A stretch of DNA of 64,000 nt from Solirubrobacteraceae bacterium (GTDB lineage Bacteria; Actinomycetota; Thermoleophilia; Solirubrobacterales; Solirubrobacteraceae). The position numbers and the translations under genes are program-made. Of the stretch, positions 24,442-64,000 are shown one piece after another. Each line of letters starts with the position of its first letter. The first letter of the stretch is position 1. The stretch spans positions 1 to 64,000 of the forward strand of contig JAUXSD010000211.1 of the NCBI GenBank assembly GCA_030681525.1, read 5' to 3'. The notes under the pieces are model-generated. The model saw only the letters and a program-made list of their open reading frames with translations. It was not told where the DNA came from and searched no databases.

Positions 24442-25479
24442 ATGGCACGAATCGGACTTCTGACAGGCGGCGGCGACTGCCCCGGCCTCAACCCCGTCAT
24501 CCGCGGAATCGTCCGCAAGGGGATCGACCACTACGGGCACGAGATCTTCGGCTTCCGCAAGGGCTGGAAGGGCGTGCTCGACAACGACGCGATCGAGCTG
24601 ACACGCGAGAACACGAGCGGCATCCTGCACAAGGGCGGCACGATCCTCGGCACCTCGCGCACGAACGTCTACAAGACCGACAACGGCGAGGAGCGCGTGC
24701 TGGCCTCGCTGAAGGAGCGCGGCATCGACGTGCTCATCCCGATCGGCGGCGACGACACCCTCGGCGTGGCGCGCAAGCTCTTCGAGGCGGGCTTTCCGAC
24801 CGTCGGCGTGCCCAAGACGATCGACAACGACCTCAACGCGACCGACTTCACGTTCGGCTTTCAGACCGCGGTGCAGATCGCCACGGAGGCGATCGACCGC
24901 CTGCACTCGACGGCCGAGTCACACGACCGCGTGATCATCTGCGAGGTCATGGGCCGCGACGCGGGCTGGATCGCCTGCTACTCCGGCATGGCCGGCGGCG
25001 CCGACGTCATCCTCGTCCCGGAGCGCCCGTTCGACCTCGACGACGTCTGCGGCCACATCACCCACCGCCACGAGACGACCGGCCGGACGTTCTCGATCGT
25101 CGTGGTCGCCGAGGGCGCGACGCCGGCCGAAGGCGGCGAGGCCGCGACCGCGGCGGACACCGTGGACTCCTTCGGCCACGCGCGGCTGGGCGGGATCGCC
25201 AACCAGCTCGAGACGCAGATCGAGGAGAAGACCGGCTACGAGTGCCGCGCCACGGTGCTCGGCCACATCCAGCGCGGCGGCTCGCCGATCGCCTTCGACC
25301 GCATCCTGGGGACGCGCTTCGGCGTCGCCGCGGTCGATGCCGCCTCCAACGGCGACTTCGGGAAGATGGTGGCGCTGCACGGCACCGCGATCGAGCTCGT
25401 GGCCCTCGAGGACGCGCTGAGCGAGCCGAAGCTGCTCGACGACTCGCTGTTCGAGACCGCGCAGGTCTTCTTCGGGTAG
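24442..25479 (+). CDS. 6-phosphofructokinase, predicted pyrophosphate-dependent
   Basis: 345 residues from ATG 24442; a nearby in-frame ATG at 24433 is possible. PFK family motifs: [11 protein letters not shown] at the N-terminus, [10 protein letters not shown] (102-110) and PKTIDND (124-130). ATP-dependent enzymes usually carry GGDGS and PGTIDND; the second Asp of GGDD and the Lys of PKTIDND are the residues that mark pyrophosphate-dependent enzymes. The prediction is therefore reversible PPi:fructose-6-phosphate phosphotransfer, usable in glycolysis and gluconeogenesis. It is followed closely by dtd. Confidence 0.88.
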
Positions 25480-55924: not shown

Positions 55925-56332
55925 ATGCCTGCACACGATCCCCTCTACGACCTCGTTCTCATGCTCGACAGCGCCGCTCCCGACGAGCAGCGTCAGCGGG
56001 TGCTGAGCGGCGTCGAGACGACCATCGCCTCCGGCGGAGAGATCGTCAACACGCAGGACTGGGGCGTCCGGCAGATGGCGTACGAGATCCGCCACAAGGC
56101 CGACACCGAGTACCACCTGCTGCAGTTCCACGGCACGCGCGAGGTTCTCGAGACCCTGCAGCGCACGCTGAAGATCGCCGACGGCGTCATGCGCTTTCGC
56201 ATCATCAAGCTCGCGCCGGGCACCCCGGCGCCCCCCGCGAACCGCCCCGAGCCGCGCCCTACGGGCATCGGCGAGACGGTCGCGGCAGAGGCTCCCGCGC
56301 CGGTCGCGGAACCGGCCGACGCCGTCGCGTAG
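55925..56332 (+). CDS. rpsF: 30S ribosomal protein S6
   Basis: 135 residues from ATG 55925. The ferredoxin-like S6 core runs from PLYDLVLMLDSAAPDEQ to VMRFRIIKLAP (about residue 97), followed by an Ala/Pro/Glu tail of about 38 residues that is longer than in most bacteria. It binds S18 on the platform of the small subunit. It heads the rpsF-ssb-rpsR-rplI cluster, but a 182-nt gap with its own promoter separates it from ssb. Confidence 0.93.
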   Translation: MPAHDPLYDLVLMLDSAAPDEQRQRVLSGVETTIASGGEIVNTQDWGVRQMAYEIRHKADTEYHLLQFHGTREVLETLQRTLKIADGVMRFRIIKLAPGTPAPPANRPEPRPTGIGETVAAEAPAPVAEPADAVA

Positions 56333-56514: not shown

Positions 56515-56991
56515 ATGAGCGGCTTTGACATCAACACGGTGACCGTGTCCGGGAACCTCACGCGCGAGCCCGAGCTGCGCAACCTGCCCAACGGCGGACA
56601 GTCCGTGTGCTCGCTGCGGATCGCCCACAACGACCGCTACAAGGACGCCTCGGGCAACTGGGCCGACCGGGCGTCGTACTTCGACGTCTCCGTCTGGGGC
56701 GGCCTCGGCGAGTGGATGGCCAGCAACCTCACGAAGGGCCAGAAGGTCGTCGTCTCCGGCCGCCTGAAGTGGCGCGAGTGGGGCGAGGAGGGCAACAAGC
56801 GCCAGGCGGTCGACATCTCCGCCGACAGCGTCGTGCCGGTCGTGCGCGACGGCTCCCGCGGCCAGGGCGGCGGCGGTCAGTCCAACGGTTTCACCCCGCG
56901 CTCCGATGTGCCCGCCAACACCGACGACTTCCAGACGGTTCCCAGCGGCGGCGCAAACCGCGCGCCGGCCGACGACGACATTCCGTTCTAG
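56515..56991 (+). CDS. ssb: Single-stranded DNA-binding protein
   Basis: 158 residues, preceded by AAGGAG at good spacing. OB-fold: NTVTVSGNLTREPELRNLPNG, FDVSVWGGLGEWMASNLTKGQKVVVSGRLKWREW. A Gly/Ser/Gln linker leads to the acidic protein-interaction tip DDDIPF. It coats ssDNA and recruits repair enzymes, and would be the partner of RarA elsewhere in this window. A palindromic hairpin lies directly downstream. Confidence 0.95.
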   Translation: MSGFDINTVTVSGNLTREPELRNLPNGGQSVCSLRIAHNDRYKDASGNWADRASYFDVSVWGGLGEWMASNLTKGQKVVVSGRLKWREWGEEGNKRQAVDISADSVVPVVRDGSRGQGGGGQSNGFTPRSDVPANTDDFQTVPSGGANRAPADDDIPF

Positions 56992-56992
56992 G

Positions 56993-57022
56993 GGCCTGCG
57001 CCGCGACGTCGCGGCGCGGGCT
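56993..57022 (+). terminator. GC-rich palindromic hairpin after ssb
   Basis: GCGCCGCGACGTCGCGGCGC (56998-57017) is a perfect 20-bp palindrome extended by GGCC/GGGC pairing outside a U-G wobble. It sits 6 nt after the ssb stop and about 60 nt before the GH65 gene. It is a plausible terminator separating the inserted sugar genes from ssb. Confidence 0.5.
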
Positions 57023-57067
57023 TGCGCCGCTTCACAACCCGGCAGCCGGCCGGGGATGATCTTGCGC

Positions 57068-57073
57068 TAGCGT
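57068..57073 (+). promoter_or_regulatory. -10 box (TAGCGT) for the GH65 gene
   Basis: TAGCGT ends 8 nt before GTG 57082. With the hairpin after ssb it suggests the GH65-HAD pair is an independent, leaderless transcription unit. Confidence 0.45.
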
Positions 57074-57081
57074 CACCCCTC

Positions 57082-59532
57082 GTGGACGAGCGCTCGCTGA
57101 CGTACGACGGGTTCGATCCTGGCGAAGAGGGCTTGCGCGAAGCGCTCACCTCGACCGGCAACGGCTACTTCTGCACCCGCGGCACGGCCGAGTGGGAGGA
57201 CACCGACGACGTCCACTACGCCGGCACGTACGCGCACGGGCTCTACAACCGCGAGACGACGATCATGGGCGGCCGGCCCGTGCTCAACGAGGACCTCGTC
57301 AACCTGCCCAACTGGCTCGTGCTCAAGCTGCGCGTCGAGGGCGAGGATGCGATCCGCTTCGGCAACGTCGAGCTGCTCGACTACCGCCACGAGTACGACA
57401 TCGGCACCGCGATGGTCATCCGCGCGCTGCGCTTCCGCGATCGCCGCGGCCGCGAGATGACGCTGCGCAGCCGGCGCTTCATGAGCATGGCGCACTCCCA
57501 CCAGGCGGCGATCGAGTGGACGCTGACCGCGGAGAACTGGTCGGGCTGCGTCGAGGTCGTCGCCGCGCTGGACGGCCGCGTCACCAACACCGGCGTCGCG
57601 CGCTACGGCGACCTCGAGGGCCGCCACCTCGACGCGGTCTCGCCACGCACCTTCGGCCCGGAGATCATCGCGCTGCACGTCGTGACGCGCCAGTCGAACA
57701 TCTACGTCGCGCAGGCCGCCCGCACGCGCGTGTTCCGCGGCGACGAGCAGCTCGACGTCGGGCGCGACCTCTTCCAGGCCGAGGACTACATCCAGCAGGT
57801 CCTGAGCTTCGACATCTCGCAGGGCGAGCCGGTCCGCGTCGAGAAGCTCGTCTCGCTGTACACCTCCCGCGACCGCGCGATCTACGAGCCGCTGACGAAC
57901 GCCGGCAAGTCGGTCGGCCGCTACCCCGACTTCGCCGAGGCGCTGCAGCGCCACACCCGCGCGTGGGACGAGCTGTGGCGCTCCAGCGACGTCGTGGTCC
58001 CCGGCAACGAGCGCGTGCAGCACCTGCTGCGGCTGCACATCTCGCACATCCTGCAGGTCTGCTCGCTGCACACGACCAACCACGACGCCGGCGTTCCGGC
58101 CCGCGGCCTCAACGGCGAGGCCTACCGCGGCCACGTCTTCTGGGACGAGCTGTACGTCTTTCGCTACCTCACCTCGCGCCTGCCGGAGATCACCCGCGAG
58201 CTGATCATGTACCGCTACCGGCGCCTCGGCGAGGCCCGCGCCGCCGCCCGCGAGGCGGGCTACCGCGGAGCGATGTTCCCGTGGCAGAGCGGCAGCGACG
58301 GCAGCGAGGAGACGCAGGTCGTCCACCTCAACCCGCTGTCGGGCCAGTGGGACCCCGACCTCAGCCATCGCCAGCGCCACGTCAACGCGGCGATCTTCTA
58401 CAACGTCTGGCACTACCACCAGGCGACCGACGACCTCGACTTCCTGCGCGACCACGGCGCGGAGATCATGCTGGAGATCGCGCGCTTCTGGAGCTCGATC
58501 GCCCACTACAACCCCGAGCGCAACCGCTACGAGATCCACGGCGTGATGGGCCCGGACGAGTTTCATGAGAAGTACCCGGGCGCCGGCGACAGCGGGCTGC
58601 GCAACAACGCCTACACGAACGTCCTCGTCGCGTGGATCTGCGAACAGGCGCAGGTCGTCCTCGGCCTGCTGACCGAGCGCCGCCGCGACACCCTGCGCGC
58701 CAAGCTCGGCCTCACCGACGAGGAGGTCGAGACCTGGCAGGCGATGAGCGAGAAGATGTACATCCCGTTTCACGGCGACGGGATCATCAGCCAGTTCGAG
58801 GACTACGACGACCTCGAGGAGCTCGACTGGGACGCCTACCGCGCCAAGCACGACAACATCCAGCGCCTGGACCGGATCCTGCGCGCCGACGGCGACGACC
58901 CCGACCGCTACAAGCTCGCCAAGCAGGCCGACACGGTGCTGCTGTTCTTTCTGTTCTCGCCCGACGAGATCGCGGCGATGTTCGAGCGCCTCGGCTACGA
59001 GTGGGGGCCCGACAGCGCGCGGCGCAACATCGACTACTACGACGAGCGCACGTCGCACGGCTCGACGCTGAGCTACATCGCCCACGCCGGCGTGCTCGCG
59101 CCGATCGACCCCGACCACTCGTGGGAGCGCTTCCTCGTCGCGCTCGAGAGCGACATCGGCGACGTCCAGGGCGGCACGACGAAGGAGGGCATCCACCTCG
59201 GCGTCATGGCGGGCACGATCGACCTCGTCCAGCGCGCCTACACCGGCGCGGAGATCCGCGACGGCGTCCTGTACTTCGCGCCGATGCTCACCGACCGCCT
59301 CAACGGGCTGTCGTTTCCCATGCAGGTGCACGGCACGCCGATCCGCGTGACGCTCCGCGACGGCGAGCTGACGGTCGTCATCACCGGCGGCTTCAGCCGC
59401 GCGATCAAGGTCGGCATCGGAGACGACGTGCGCGAGCTGGGCGCCGGCGAGCGCTGCACGTTCACGCTCCAGGCGCCGGCGCGGGCACCGACGGCGGTCG
59501 GACAGGGCAGCGACACCCAGGGGGAGACATGA
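57082..59532 (+). CDS. Glycoside hydrolase family 65 disaccharide phosphorylase/hydrolase
   Basis: 816 residues from GTG 57082. The GH65 layout is complete: N-terminal beta-sandwich starting STGNGYFCTRGTAEW, linker, (alpha/alpha)6 barrel with GEAYRGHVFWDELYVFRYLT, catalytic acid E493 in GVMGPDEFHE, the phosphate-site HGS (residue 659) in RTSHGSTLS, and a C-terminal beta-jellyroll. Presence of HGS favours phosphorolysis over hydrolysis. Substrate could be trehalose, kojibiose, nigerose or maltose; it cannot be decided here. It overlaps the HAD mutase gene by 4 nt, the classic pairing that turns beta-glucose-1-phosphate into glucose-6-phosphate. Confidence 0.9.
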   Translation: MDERSLTYDGFDPGEEGLREALTSTGNGYFCTRGTAEWEDTDDVHYAGTYAHGLYNRETTIMGGRPVLNEDLVNLPNWLVLKLRVEGEDAIRFGNVELLDYRHEYDIGTAMVIRALRFRDRRGREMTLRSRRFMSMAHSHQAAIEWTLTAENWSGCVEVVAALDGRVTNTGVARYGDLEGRHLDAVSPRTFGPEIIALHVVTRQSNIYVAQAARTRVFRGDEQLDVGRDLFQAEDYIQQVLSFDISQGEPVRVEKLVSLYTSRDRAIYEPLTNAGKSVGRYPDFAEALQRHTRAWDELWRSSDVVVPGNERVQHLLRLHISHILQVCSLHTTNHDAGVPARGLNGEAYRGHVFWDELYVFRYLTSRLPEITRELIMYRYRRLGEARAAAREAGYRGAMFPWQSGSDGSEETQVVHLNPLSGQWDPDLSHRQRHVNAAIFYNVWHYHQATDDLDFLRDHGAEIMLEIARFWSSIAHYNPERNRYEIHGVMGPDEFHEKYPGAGDSGLRNNAYTNVLVAWICEQAQVVLGLLTERRRDTLRAKLGLTDEEVETWQAMSEKMYIPFHGDGIISQFEDYDDLEELDWDAYRAKHDNIQRLDRILRADGDDPDRYKLAKQADTVLLFFLFSPDEIAAMFERLGYEWGPDSARRNIDYYDERTSHGSTLSYIAHAGVLAPIDPDHSWERFLVALESDIGDVQGGTTKEGIHLGVMAGTIDLVQRAYTGAEIRDGVLYFAPMLTDRLNGLSFPMQVHGTPIRVTLRDGELTVVITGGFSRAIKVGIGDDVRELGAGERCTFTLQAPARAPTAVGQGSDTQGET

Positions 59533-60323
59533 CCACGCAGGAGGGATTTCGGGGCGCGATCTTCGACGTCGACGGCGTGCTCGTCGACTCGCCGCACGAG
59601 GCGGCCTGGCGTGACGCCTTCGCCGAGCTCATGGAGGGCGACTGGGCCGACATCCGCGACGAGACGAGCTGGACGCCGGACGCGTTCACGGCGCGCGTCT
59701 ACCAGGAGGTCCTCTCGGGCAAGCCGCGGATGGCCGGCGCGATGGGCGCGCTCGAGCACTTCGGCGTGCCCGATCCCGAGTCGCGCGTCGAGGCCTACGC
59801 CGACCGCAAGCAGGAGATGGTCATCGAGCTCATCGAGGCCGGCAAGTTCTCCGCCTACCCCGACGCGCTGCGCTTCGTCATCGCCGTCAAGGACGCCGGC
59901 ATGAAGATCGCGGCGGCCTCCTCGTCGAAGAACGCCGGCCTCTTCCTGCGCAAGATCCGCCTCGACAGCTTCGCCGAGGAGGAGGGCCTGACGCCCGACT
60001 GGATGACGGAGGGGCTCACGCTGCTGGATGCCTTCGACGTCGACATCTCGGGCCGTGAGTTCAAGCAGGGCAAGCCGCACCCGGAGATCTTCCTCACCGC
60101 CGGAAGCGAGCTGGGCATCGGCCCGGCCGCCGCGTTCGTCATCGAGGACGCCGAGTCGGGCATCCAGGCGGCGAAGGCCGGCGACTTCGCCGGGCTCGGC
60201 GTCGCGCGCCACGACGACGAGGCGCTGCTGGAGCGCGCGAACGCCGACATCGTCGTCGCATCGCTCGACGAGATCTCCCTCGAGGCGCTCGCCGAGGGCC
60301 GTCTCGAGCGCCGGCCGGGCTGA
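59529..60323 (+). CDS. HAD hydrolase, beta-phosphoglucomutase-like
   Basis: 264 residues, about 40 longer than classic beta-PGM. The catalytic DxD is FDVDGVLVDS. A helical cap follows, then AAASSSKNA (motif II), QGKPHPEIFL (motif III Lys) and VIEDAESGIQAAKAG (motif IV). The extra length lies mainly before motif III (LTPDWMTEGLTLLDAFDVDISG). Coupled to GH65 it should isomerise beta-glucose-1-phosphate. Because OtsB is missing nearby, a phosphatase role on trehalose-6-phosphate cannot be excluded but is speculative. Confidence 0.85.
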   Translation: MTTQEGFRGAIFDVDGVLVDSPHEAAWRDAFAELMEGDWADIRDETSWTPDAFTARVYQEVLSGKPRMAGAMGALEHFGVPDPESRVEAYADRKQEMVIELIEAGKFSAYPDALRFVIAVKDAGMKIAAASSSKNAGLFLRKIRLDSFAEEEGLTPDWMTEGLTLLDAFDVDISGREFKQGKPHPEIFLTAGSELGIGPAAAFVIEDAESGIQAAKAGDFAGLGVARHDDEALLERANADIVVASLDEISLEALAEGRLERRPG

Positions 60324-60437
60324 CCGCACGGGCCCGCGCGTAGCGCAATCCGCGGACGTCGCGCCGCGTTTGTCACAATGACCGCCCGCGCGCAACGCCG
60401 TGCGCGCTCTCAGCAAGCGACTTAAGGACTTTCGTCA

Positions 60438-60767
60438 GTGGCAAAGCAGCGCAACCGTGGCAAGCCCACGCGCCGACGCGACAAGAAGGGCGGGCCCGGC
60501 ACCGGCCGGCGCAAGCCTTGTCCGTACTGCAAGGACAAGGTCGAGCAGGTTGACTACAAGGACACCGCCGTCCTGCGCAAGTTCATCTCCGAGAAGGGGA
60601 AGATCCGCTCGCGGCGGATCACCGGCGCGTGCCGCCGTCACCAGAGCCAGATCGCCCGCGCGGTCAAGCGCGCCCGCGAGCTGGCGCTGCTGCCCTACGT
60701 CAACGAGGGCGGCCGCGACGACACCGAGCGCGAGGGTGGTCGCGGCGGACGCCGCGGACGCGACTAG
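60438..60767 (+). CDS. rpsR: 30S ribosomal protein S18
   Basis: 109 residues from GTG 60438, with AAGGAC 9 nt upstream. S18 core: [61 protein letters not shown]. The CPYC plus ACRRH residues make it the Cys-containing, potentially zinc-binding (C+) S18 type. A basic N-terminus and an Asp/Glu/Gly/Arg tail extend beyond the usual 75-80 residues. It is separated from ssb by the GH65-HAD pair. Confidence 0.94.
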
Positions 60768-60771
60768 CGCG

Positions 60772-61224
60772 ATGCCGTCAGCCATCCTCATGCAGGACGT
60801 CGAGCACCTCGGCGAGCGCGGCGCCGTCGTCGACGTCTCCAAGGGCTACCTGCGCAACTACCTCATGCCGCGCAAGCTCGCCCAGCCGGCCACGAAGGGC
60901 GCGCTCGACGAGGCCAAGCGCCGCGCCGAGTCGACCGACCGCGCCACCCAGGCGATCGTCGCCAAGGCCAAGGAGGACGCCGAGGTCCTCAGCCGCACGG
61001 TGCTGACGATCAGCCAGCAGGCCGGCGACGACGGCCGCCTGTTCGGCTCGGTCACCAACCAGGACATCGCCGATGCGATCGAGGAAGCGCGCGGCGTGAA
61101 GGTCGACCGGCGCAAGATCCACCTCGAGGAGCCGATCAAGAACGTCGGCACCTACGTCGTCGTCGTCGAGGTCGCCGAGGGCGTCACCGCCTCGGTCAAG
61201 ACGATGGTCGTCGAGCGAACCTGA
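60772..61224 (+). CDS. rplI: 50S ribosomal protein L9
   Basis: 150 residues from ATG 60772. N-terminal rRNA-binding domain ILMQDVEHLGERGAVVDVSKGYLRNYLMPRKLA, a long connecting helix (KRRAESTDRATQAIVAKAKEDAEVL) and the C-terminal domain (LFGSVTNQDIADAI ... KVDRRKIHLEEPIKNVGTYVV). It lies 4 nt after rpsR. Its stop TGA overlaps a CTG that may start the next small gene. Confidence 0.95.
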   Translation: MPSAILMQDVEHLGERGAVVDVSKGYLRNYLMPRKLAQPATKGALDEAKRRAESTDRATQAIVAKAKEDAEVLSRTVLTISQQAGDDGRLFGSVTNQDIADAIEEARGVKVDRRKIHLEEPIKNVGTYVVVVEVAEGVTASVKTMVVERT

Positions 61225-61977: not shown

Positions 61978-62936
61978 CCCGCGGCGGCCAGCGCGGCCGC
62001 CACGGCGCCCAGCCGCGCCCGCCGCTTCGTCGCCCACCAGGCGATCGAGCGCGACTTGGCCTCGTCGGAGAAGCGTCCGTGCGCGCCGGGATCGCCCGGC
62101 GCCGGGGCGAAGAGGTAGTCCGGCCGGTCGGGATCGATCGGATCGTCGGTCTGCTGCGCCTCGACGTTCGTGCGCGCCAGGAAGCGGTCGGCCACGCGCG
62201 GCGCGAGCTTGTTGGCGAGGATCGTCATGACGCTCGAGCCGGCGACGAAGAACTCGCGCCGCGGATGGTCGATCGCCCACAGGATCGCGTCGGCGGCGAC
62301 CTCGGGCTGGAAGACCGGGGCGACCGGCCGCGGGTGGCGGCGCAGCGTCGTGCGCACCCAGCCGAACTGCGGGGTGTTCAGGCCGGGCAGGTGCACGGTG
62401 CTGACCTTCACCGCGCTGCCCTCGTGCATGAGCTCGCAGCGCAGCGCGTCGGCGAAGCCGCGGGCCGCGTGCTTGGCGGCGCAGTAGCTGGCCTGCAGCG
62501 GGATCGCGCGATAGGCGAGCGCCGAGCCGACCATCACGATGACGCCGCGGTCGCGGGGGCGCATCCGGCGCAGGGCGGCGAGCGTGCCGTGGACGTAGCC
62601 GAGGTACGTGACCTCGGTGACGCGGCGAAACTCGGCGGCCTGCGTCTCGTGCACGAAGCCGAGCACGGCGCTCATCGCGCAGTTGACCCAGACGTCGATC
62701 GGGCCGAGCTGCGCCTCGACGCGCTCGGCGGCCGCCTCGACGGCGTCGGCGTCGGCGACGTCGACCGGGCAGACGAGCGCGCGGCCGCCGGCCGCCTCGA
62801 CCTCCTGGCGCGCGGCCTCCAGCCGGCCCTCGCCGCGGGCCAGCAGGGCGACCGCGTCGCCGCGGGCGCCCAGCGCGCGGGCGACGGCGCGGCCGACACC
62901 GGCCGACGCCCCGGTCACGACGACGACCCGGCTCAC
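61947..62936 (-). CDS. Short-chain dehydrogenase/reductase
   Basis: 329 residues from GTG 62936; the ORF track runs on into the upstream gene. Cofactor motif TGASAGVGRAVARAL, then the NAG-equivalent VNCAMSAV, catalytic Ser in GSALAYRAIP and YxxxK as YCAAKHA. A C-terminal extension of about 80 residues ends near SIAWWATKRRARLG. This type (SDR with long C-terminus) reduces or oxidises unknown alcohols. The start overlaps the stop of the GH15 gene. Confidence 0.9.
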   Translation of the reverse strand: MSRVVVVTGASAGVGRAVARALGARGDAVALLARGEGRLEAARQEVEAAGGRALVCPVDVADADAVEAAAERVEAQLGPIDVWVNCAMSAVLGFVHETQAAEFRRVTEVTYLGYVHGTLAALRRMRPRDRGVIVMVGSALAYRAIPLQASYCAAKHAARGFADALRCELMHEGSAVKVSTVHLPGLNTPQFGWVRTTLRRHPRPVAPVFQPEVAADAILWAIDHPRREFFVAGSSVMTILANKLAPRVADRFLARTNVEAQQTDDPIDPDRPDYLFAPAPGDPGAHGRFSDEAKSRSIAWWATKRRARLGAVAAALAAAGYELLSSRRE

Positions 62937-64000
62937 GACGCGCTCACCGACTGGCGGTCGCGCGCCTCGCTGATCGCGACCGCGGCGCTGATCAGGCCGA
63001 TGTGCGAGATCGCCTGCGGGAAGTTGCCCAGCGGATCGCCGGTCGCGACGTCGACCTCCTCGGCGAGCAGGCCGAGGTCGTTGGCGCCGGCCGCCGCCCG
63101 CGCGAAGACGTGCTCGGCGCGCTCCAGGCGCCCGGCCAGCGCGTGGCACTCGGCCAGCCAGAACGAGGCGAGCAGAAACGGGCCGTCCTGCGCATCGGAC
63201 CAGCGGCGCAGCAGCCCGTCGTCGCCGAGATGCGCCTCGAGCGCCGCGATCGTGCTCGTCATCCGCGGGTCGTCGGCGTCGACGAAGCCCGACAGCGCCA
63301 TGAGCAGCACGCCGGCGTCGAGATGGTCGGAGCCGAAGGCGCCGGCGAACGCGGAGCGCTCCTCGCACCACGCCTCGCGCAGGATCGTCTCGCGCAGCTC
63401 GTCGCGCACGCTGGCCCAGCGGCGCGGGTCGGCATGCTCGCCGAGGCGGTCGGCCAGCCGCACCGCCCGGTCCAGCGCGACCCAGCAGCCCAGCTTGGAG
63501 ACCGTGTAGTGACGCTCGCCCTCGCGGCCCTCCCAGATGCTCGAGTCGGTCTCGCCCCACTGCTCGGCGGCGCGGTCGGTGAGCTGGCAGAGAAACTCGC
63601 CGGTGAACGCGTCCAGCTCGCCGATCTCGTCGCGGATGGCCCAGGCGCAGTCCAGCACGTGGCCGAGCACGTCGAGCTGCTTCTGCTGCCACGCGGCGTT
63701 GCCGACGCGCACCGGCCGGGCGCCGCCGTGGCCGGCGAGGTGCGCGAGCTCGTGCTCGGACAGGTCGCGCTCGCCCTCGACGCCGAACATGATCTGGACG
63801 TCCTCGGCGCCCGCGCAGGTGACGCCGGCGCGCACGATCCAGTCGAAGTAGCGCCGCGGCTCGTCGCTGCAGCGCGCCACCGAGAGAGCGCGGGCGATCA
63901 TCGCGGCGTCGCGCAGCCAGCCGAAGCGGTAGTCCCAGTTGGAGTCGCCGCCCGGCACCTCGGGCAGCGACGTCGTCGGCGCGGCGACGACGGCGCCGCT
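62933..64000 (-). CDS. Glycoside hydrolase family 15 protein (glucoamylase/trehalase-like), 5' end beyond the window
   Basis: 355 codons are visible and the frame stays open to base 64000; the ORF-track Met (63958) is internal. The upstream residues VVAAPTTSLPEVPGG followed by NWDYRFGWLRDAAM are the start of the GH15 (alpha/alpha)6 barrel. SSIWEGRE carries the general acid Glu, and GDPLGNFPQAISHIGLI ends the barrel. Actinobacterial relatives include trehalases and dextran/maltose glucohydrolases, which fits the trehalose genes 3-10 kb away. It is coupled to the SDR gene. Confidence 0.88.
   Translation of the reverse strand, partial: SGAVVAAPTTSLPEVPGGDSNWDYRFGWLRDAAMIARALSVARCSDEPRRYFDWIVRAGVTCAGAEDVQIMFGVEGERDLSEHELAHLAGHGGARPVRVGNAAWQQKQLDVLGHVLDCAWAIRDEIGELDAFTGEFLCQLTDRAAEQWGETDSSIWEGREGERHYTVSKLGCWVALDRAVRLADRLGEHADPRRWASVRDELRETILREAWCEERSAFAGAFGSDHLDAGVLLMALSGFVDADDPRMTSTIAALEAHLGDDGLLRRWSDAQDGPFLLASFWLAECHALAGRLERAEHVFARAAAGANDLGLLAEEVDVATGDPLGNFPQAISHIGLISAAVAISEARDRQSVSAS

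What the first reader, a model, noticed from the sequence alone, without database searches (positions are those of the whole stretch)
57082..60323. A GH65 phosphorylase-HAD mutase pair sits inside the rpsF-ssb-rpsR-rplI ribosomal cluster
rpsF, ssb, rpsR and rplI are normally contiguous. Here a 3.2-kb coupled pair for alpha-glucoside phosphorolysis lies between ssb and rpsR. A perfect palindromic hairpin follows ssb and a TAGCGT box lies 8 nt before the GH65 start, so the pair looks like its own transcription unit. It could be a recent insertion or a lineage-specific fixed arrangement linking carbon storage to translation.
Basis: partly seen in the sequence, partly recalled or inferred. Interest (0 to 1): 0.6.

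Follow-up and report, generated by a model that had tools for sequence, protein, structure and literature searches.

The report
Sugar-phosphate gene pair splits ribosomal cluster
In some soil bacteria of one Solirubrobacteraceae genus, a two-gene set predicted to split trehalose-6-phosphate sits between two normally adjacent ribosomal-cluster genes and carries its own start signal; relatives keep the same set elsewhere, so its position is a lineage quirk and not a link between sugar storage and protein synthesis.

Summary
Gene order is rpsF, ssb, GH65, HAD, rpsR, rplI, with an ATGA overlap inside the pair. Two other assemblies of the same genus (G087, G152) agree, so it is not a misassembly. 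It is not fixed: G151 has a plain 99-nt ssb-rpsR gap and G011 a gap of about 780 nt, and both carry the pair elsewhere. Sister-genus genomes have close ssb-rpsR spacing and mostly keep the pair behind otsB.

Among the five genus copies, homology begins about 20 nt before the GH65 start and stops at the HAD end. The TAGCGT box lies in that shared block, 7-8 nt before GTG, and fits the TANNNT -10 element of leaderless actinobacterial genes. rpsR keeps its own conserved upstream element, which may explain why the insertion is tolerated.

The HAD is beta-phosphoglucomutase-like. The GH65 carries the published trehalose-6-phosphate phosphorylase fingerprint (DQGQ), not the trehalose, kojibiose or maltose ones. 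In 46 of 80 named relatives OtsB lies directly upstream.

Best reading: a T6P-phosphorylase plus beta-PGM cassette with its own leaderless promoter, relocated within one genus. A link to translation is unsupported. The T6PP-betaPGM-OtsB association is the more interesting residue.

The parts
55925..56332 (+). rpsF (bS6); TATCCT box just before the ATG, the same leaderless -10 pattern (GCTATNNT) in all five genus copies
   Evidence: PF01250; upstream comparison
56515..56991 (+). ssb
   Evidence: PF00436
56994..57021 (+). GC-rich hairpin after ssb, likely terminator or insulator; a different hairpin stands at the same place in G087 and G152
   Evidence: inverted repeat; folds
57063..57073 (+). 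TGCGCTAGCGT, conserved box containing the TAGCGT -10-like element (57068-57073), 8 nt before GTG; shared by all five main genus copies at three different sites
57082..59532 (+). GH65, predicted trehalose-6-phosphate phosphorylase (fingerprint DQGQ; catalytic Glu493; phosphate site Arg341, Ser661, Thr662, His705)
   Evidence: PF03636/PF03632/PF03633; fingerprint and site residues
59529..60323 (+). HAD beta-phosphoglucomutase-like, start overlapping the GH65 stop (ATGA)
   Evidence: PF00702; TIGR02009 117 bits, below its 153-bit cut-off; best PDB hits are beta-PGMs
60368..60407 (+). conserved rpsR upstream element: TTTGTCACAATGAC plus GC-rich inverted repeat, present also where the pair is absent (approximate limits)
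   Evidence: alignment of spacers from five species; gaps of other family members
60438..60767 (+). rpsR (bS18)
   Evidence: PF01084
60772..61224 (+). rplI (bL9)
   Evidence: PF03948/PF01281
53777..55270 (+). otsA-like GT20 (T6P synthase family), a common neighbour of rpsF in this family; potential source of T6P but not part of the cassette
   Evidence: PF00982, below NCBIfam OtsA cut-off; synteny

Best explanation
A bicistronic cassette with its own leaderless promoter encodes a GH65 trehalose-6-phosphate phosphorylase and a beta-phosphoglucomutase. Chemistry (inferred from family and fingerprint, not assayed): T6P + Pi gives beta-glucose-1-phosphate + glucose-6-phosphate, and the HAD turns beta-G1P into a second G6P. 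The likely role is to return T6P to glycolysis without losing the phosphate. Transcription (inferred): RNA polymerase starts at or beside the GTG from the TAGCGT -10 box; the hairpin after ssb stops rpsF-ssb transcripts; rpsR-rplI keep their own upstream element. History: comparison shows that the cassette belongs to the genus, sits between ssb and rpsR in three species and at other sites in two more. Most economically it entered this gap once in the ancestor of G000, G011, G087 and G152 and left it again in G011 (inferred). The spot is tolerated because it lies between two transcription units, not because the functions are coupled (inferred).
For: Same order in three assemblies. 99-nt ssb-rpsR gap in G151 and close spacing in four sister-genus genomes; gap of about 780 nt in G011 with the pair on another contig. 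Cassette homology begins about 20 nt before GTG, includes the box, and ends at the HAD end, with unrelated flanks. TANNNT boxes sit preferentially 6-12 nt before candidate starts in the window, 12 against 2 at the other distances scanned, as published for leaderless Actinobacteria genes (PMC3160421). The first four fingerprint positions (DQGQ) equal those of the published T6PP motif DQGQDE; controls CsKP = EEAP and LbMP = KVFN come out right, and GH65 paralogs of the same genome give TRI(A/G), the trehalose-phosphorylase type (PMC8537180). Phosphate-site residues are phosphorylase-like, not hydrolase-like (PMC8626586). Best solved relative is deposited as trehalose-6-phosphate hydrolase. Among 80 named relatives 73 have a beta-PGM-like neighbour and 46 have OtsB directly upstream on the same strand, median 63 nt.
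Against: No assay and no transcript data. At fingerprint position 416 the residue depends on a one-column alignment choice, and position 585 is D here where T6PPs have E (E in the other genus members). The HAD scores below the curated cut-off of the beta-PGM models. How T6P would be supplied was not settled: no trehalose import route as in Lactococcus was looked for. The species tree rests on two genes that disagree in part, so one insertion plus one departure is not proven over two insertions.
Confidence: 0.7

Rival explanations
1. Synthetic direction: with OtsB (one copy elsewhere in this genome, adjacent in relatives) the pair makes trehalose from glucose-6-phosphate without UDP-glucose: G6P to beta-G1P (beta-PGM reversed), beta-G1P + G6P to T6P + Pi (GH65 reversed), then OtsB dephosphorylation pulls the flow.
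For: T6PP-type GH65, beta-PGM and OtsB are clustered in many relatives, OtsB immediately upstream in 46 of 80. beta-PGM-like HAD and OtsB are fused in L092 and L097; OtsB and GH65 are fused in a Rhodococcus plasmid gene. T6PP is used in the synthetic direction in vitro (PMC13121652).
Against: In the window genome OtsB is not adjacent and an OtsA-like synthase is present. MFS transporter and ROK kinase genes beside many relatives suggest uptake and breakdown. The mutase and phosphorylase equilibria inside cells are unknown.
Confidence: 0.2
2. The GH65 is a trehalose (or other glucobiose) phosphorylase.
For: ROK kinase and MFS sugar transporter next to GH65 in 19-20 of 80 relatives would suit a reaction releasing free glucose.
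Against: The fingerprint is DQGQ and not TRIG, EEAP or KV[MF]N; three other GH65 genes in the same genome carry the TRI fingerprint.
Confidence: 0.12
3. Functional coupling: placing the pair inside the rpsF-rplI cluster tunes T6P metabolism with ribosome supply, or with the nearby otsA.
For: Same direction as the ribosomal genes; an otsA-like gene lies about 1.8 kb upstream and is a common neighbour of rpsF in the family.
Against: G011 and G151 keep the pair elsewhere; own promoter box and a hairpin after ssb; rpsR keeps its own upstream element.
Confidence: 0.06

Closest known systems
Lactococcus lactis trehalose-6-phosphate phosphorylase with beta-phosphoglucomutase
   Same: Predicted same two-step chemistry; GH65 fingerprint of the T6PP subgroup; beta-PGM-type HAD
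   Different: Different genomic site and promoter; in Lactococcus T6P comes from imported trehalose, here an OtsA-like gene is nearby (Lactococcus pathway partly from general knowledge)
OtsB-GH65-betaPGM clusters of Actinomycetota (e.g. Actinomycetospora, Pseudonocardia, sister-genus Solirubrobacteraceae)
   Same: Same GH65 clade (about 65-76% identity) and a similar HAD
   Different: Window genus lacks the adjacent OtsB, ROK and MFS genes and has a leaderless-type promoter box; OtsB is at a separate locus
Mycobacterium tuberculosis OtsB1 (Rv2006)
   Same: By recollection it combines HAD, OtsB and GH65 regions; a Rhodococcus plasmid gene with OtsB+GH65 was confirmed here
   Different: Fused; no T6P phosphatase activity and no obvious phenotype reported, function unknown (PMC11046441). 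Its sequence was not examined here
Canonical rpsF-ssb-rpsR-rplI cluster
   Same: All four genes in order and direction
   Different: Split between ssb and rpsR by 3.2 kb

Membership tests
GH65 | N-terminal, central and C-terminal GH65 domains | tested here: met
   Pfam PF03636, PF03632, PF03633
GH65 phosphorylase (not hydrolase) | General-acid Glu and phosphate site of Lys, His and two Ser | tested here: met
   Glu493, His705 and Ser661 conserved; Thr662 for Ser and Arg341 for Lys are conservative changes shared with 9lb6
Trehalose-6-phosphate phosphorylase subgroup | Fingerprint DQGQDE at CsKP positions 64, 392, 394, 402, 416, 585 | tested here: met
   D, Q, G, Q clear; 416 is D only after the one-column shift that the maltose-phosphorylase control also needs; 585 is D (E in the other genus members)
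Trehalose-6-phosphate phosphorylase subgroup | Phosphorolysis of T6P to beta-G1P and G6P | not testable with these tools
   needs enzyme assay
Trehalose phosphorylase | Fingerprint TRIGPP | tested here: not met
   window protein DQGQ; paralogs L004/L005 give TRIA/TRIG
beta-phosphoglucomutase | NCBIfam beta-PGM curated cut-offs | tested here: not met
   TIGR01990 92.9 bits against cut-off 189.4; TIGR02009 117.3 against 153.35; best PDB hits are nevertheless beta-PGMs, so 'works like' is kept and strict membership is not claimed
Leaderless actinobacterial gene | TANNNT around 12 bp before the start codon | tested here: met
   TAGCGT starts 14 nt before GTG; published distribution is around 12
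Leaderless actinobacterial gene | Transcript 5' end at the start codon | not testable with these tools
   needs 5'-end mapping
Mobile element | Transposase, integrase or terminal repeats around the cassette | tested here: inconclusive
   none seen among the flanking ORFs inspected at the other sites; only a few flanking ORFs were scanned by family, boundaries compared by alignment

The most novel reading that the evidence does not exclude
T6P phosphorylase, beta-PGM and OtsB together form a nucleotide-sugar-free route between glucose-6-phosphate and trehalose in many Actinomycetota, which would also suggest a function for OtsB-GH65 fusions such as OtsB1; the window cassette is a two-gene, self-promoted version that has changed place within one genus.
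Probability: 0.2. Interest if true: 0.65.

Novelty: new variant of a known kind. Interest (0 to 1): 0.4.

Why it matters
It shows a ribosomal-protein cluster that is usually held together being split in one genus, apparently without loss of its control elements, by a metabolic cassette that carries its own leaderless-type promoter. It also gives a testable substrate (T6P) for a GH65 clade widespread in Actinomycetota next to OtsB, and with it a hypothesis for OtsB-GH65 fusion proteins of unknown function.

Tried and rejected
Misassembly: rejected, three assemblies agree. Recent foreign DNA by composition: not supported; GC3 of GH65 (0.973) and HAD (0.962) resembles otsA (0.976) and rplI (0.967), although the cassette's overall GC is 0.698 against 0.733 for the window. 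Fixed arrangement in the lineage: rejected. Trehalose phosphorylase: disfavoured by fingerprint; I leaned to it earlier from the OtsB/ROK/MFS neighbours. Absence of OtsB as a reason for T6P phosphorolysis: rejected, one OtsB is present. Rfam leader in 52.5-62.5 kb: none. Empty-site test at the G011 location: inconclusive, the arginase gene is shared but the genes beyond it differ. The G151 flank query found no close orthologue in the others. Partial extra copies in the own assembly (C332, C197) could not be assigned; their 47-nt overlap is only 89% identical, so they are not one molecule.

Full report
OBSERVATION. The window carries rpsF (55925-56332), ssb (56515-56991), a GH65 gene (57082-59532), a HAD gene (59529-60323), rpsR (60438-60767) and rplI (60772-61224), all on the + strand. 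The HAD start overlaps the GH65 stop as ATGA. The inverted repeat after ssb (56994-57021) is 93% complementary and folds at -29.8 kcal/mol, z -2.4. TAGCGT lies at 57068-57073.

IS IT REAL AND HOW WIDESPREAD. The genome is a 352-contig assembly, 95% complete with 5.35% contamination. In 149 genomes of the class, GH65 orthologues at E <= 1e-120 occur in 15 genomes including this one, but rpsR in 141. Genus-wide, 5 of 7 genomes have the gene, and the two without are 70-77% complete. In G087 and G152 the pair sits between ssb and rpsR exactly as here. In G151 the ssb-rpsR gap is 99 nt and the pair is on another contig; in G011 the gap is about 780 nt and the pair is on another contig. The G011 gap appears to hold a small reverse-strand ORF that I read as ribbon-helix-helix-like by eye; this was not tested by a family search. 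In the sister genus g13, six genomes have 68-76% identical copies on contigs other than that of rpsR, and the four of these that were examined have close ssb-rpsR spacing. Of 80 named relatives across public genomes, only two have rpsR and ssb nearby, and both are members of this genus.

THE CASSETTE BEHAVES AS A UNIT. Alignments between the genus copies begin about 20 nt before the GH65 start and end at the end of the HAD, with unrelated flanks. That 20-nt stretch holds TGCGCTAGCGTC, 7-8 nt before GTG, in all five main genus copies at three different sites. The partial copy C332 lacks it. In the window, TANNNT lies 6-12 nt before candidate start codons in 12 cases and in 2 at the other distances scanned (a crude gene set of 42 ORFs). 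rpsF has GCTATNNT before its ATG in all five species. This is the published leaderless signature in Actinobacteria (PMC3160421). A conserved TGTCACAATG plus GC-rich inverted repeat precedes rpsR with or without the insertion; its fold is significant in G151 but not in the window sequence. Stable hairpins follow ssb in the three genomes with the insertion (z about -2.4 each), not in G151.

DIRECTION OF EVENTS. rpoB groups G000 with G011 (98), and gyrB places them together with G150 (100); G151 is outermost in rpoB. One insertion in the ancestor of G000, G011, G087 and G152 with later departure in G011 is the most economical reading. The concatenated and ribosomal trees are poorly supported, so this remains an inference. 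Codon composition gives no sign of recent import. No transposase was seen among the flanking genes inspected. Homologues on Rubrobacter and Rhodococcus plasmids show that the family can travel.

WHAT THE ENZYMES DO. Pfam gives GH65 in three domains and a HAD; the HAD's best solved relatives are beta-phosphoglucomutases, although it falls below the curated beta-PGM cut-offs. A published six-position fingerprint separates GH65 specificities; examples are TRIGPP for trehalose phosphorylase, DQGQDE for T6P phosphorylase, EEAPxx for kojibiose phosphorylase and KV[MF]NES for maltose phosphorylase (PMC8537180). The window protein reads D, Q, G, Q at the first four positions. Controls read EEAP and KVFN as expected, and the genome's own paralogs read TRIA/TRIG. 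Residue 416 is D if the column follows the shift needed by the maltose-phosphorylase control; 585 is D here and E in the other genus members. 74 of the compared sequences read DQGQ. Phosphate-site residues are phosphorylase-like (PMC8626586). The substrate is thus predicted to be trehalose 6-phosphate.

CONTEXT. In 46 of 80 relatives OtsB lies upstream on the same strand within 400 nt, median 63; 73 have a beta-PGM-like HAD; 19-20 have ROK kinase and MFS transporter genes. Fusions of beta-PGM-like HAD with OtsB, of HAD with GH65, and of OtsB with GH65 occur. The window genome has a single OtsB elsewhere. The large protein OtsB1 of M. tuberculosis has no known function (PMC11046441); its sequence was not examined here.

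VERDICT. The arrangement is real and genus-restricted, but not fixed. The pair is an autonomous-looking, relocating T6P-phosphorylase cassette with a probable leaderless promoter. Coupling to translation is not supported. Shown: gene order, distribution, different sites in different species, conserved box, fingerprint. Inferred: transcription start, substrate, direction of flux, order of events.

Noticed in passing
G000:C311:9072-11240, C23:80105-82234, C198:16315-18385 (L004-L007): Three further GH65 loci in the same genome carry the trehalose-phosphorylase-type fingerprint (TRI-), so both T6P- and trehalose-type phosphorylases seem present.
   Followed up: partly
G000:C332 and C197 (L071, L072): Two partial extra GH65 copies (5' half and 3' half) with non-ribosomal flanks; their overlap is only 89% identical. 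C332 also carries a phosphofructokinase-like ORF 95% identical to the window's at 24442. Likely strain contamination of the assembly, or paralogs.
   Followed up: partly
G151:C7:10992-15098 and G152:C171:35052-39152: The gyrB match is interrupted by about 1.7 kb within one open frame of 1,500-1,600 aa: an intein is likely.
   Followed up: no
G087:C11:433396-436727, G151:C11:2-2140, G011:C9:19387-20859: Second rpoB-like sequences besides the main rpoB.
   Followed up: no
L068:12322-13103 (G011 ssb-rpsR gap): The gap that holds the cassette in relatives holds instead a small reverse-strand ORF that looks ribbon-helix-helix-like by eye.
   Followed up: no
L099:1904-4215 (G201:C518): Degenerate tandem copies of the HAD gene follow the GH65-HAD pair.
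   Followed up: no
window 62933-64000 (-): GH15 protein resembling archaeal trehalases TreH1/TreH2 (272 and 221 bits, below cut-offs), cut by the window end.
   Followed up: no
L264:3816-7379: Rhodococcus plasmid OtsB-GH65 fusion near universal stress protein, flavodoxin and GAF sensor kinase genes, reminiscent of a hypoxia regulon.
   Followed up: partly
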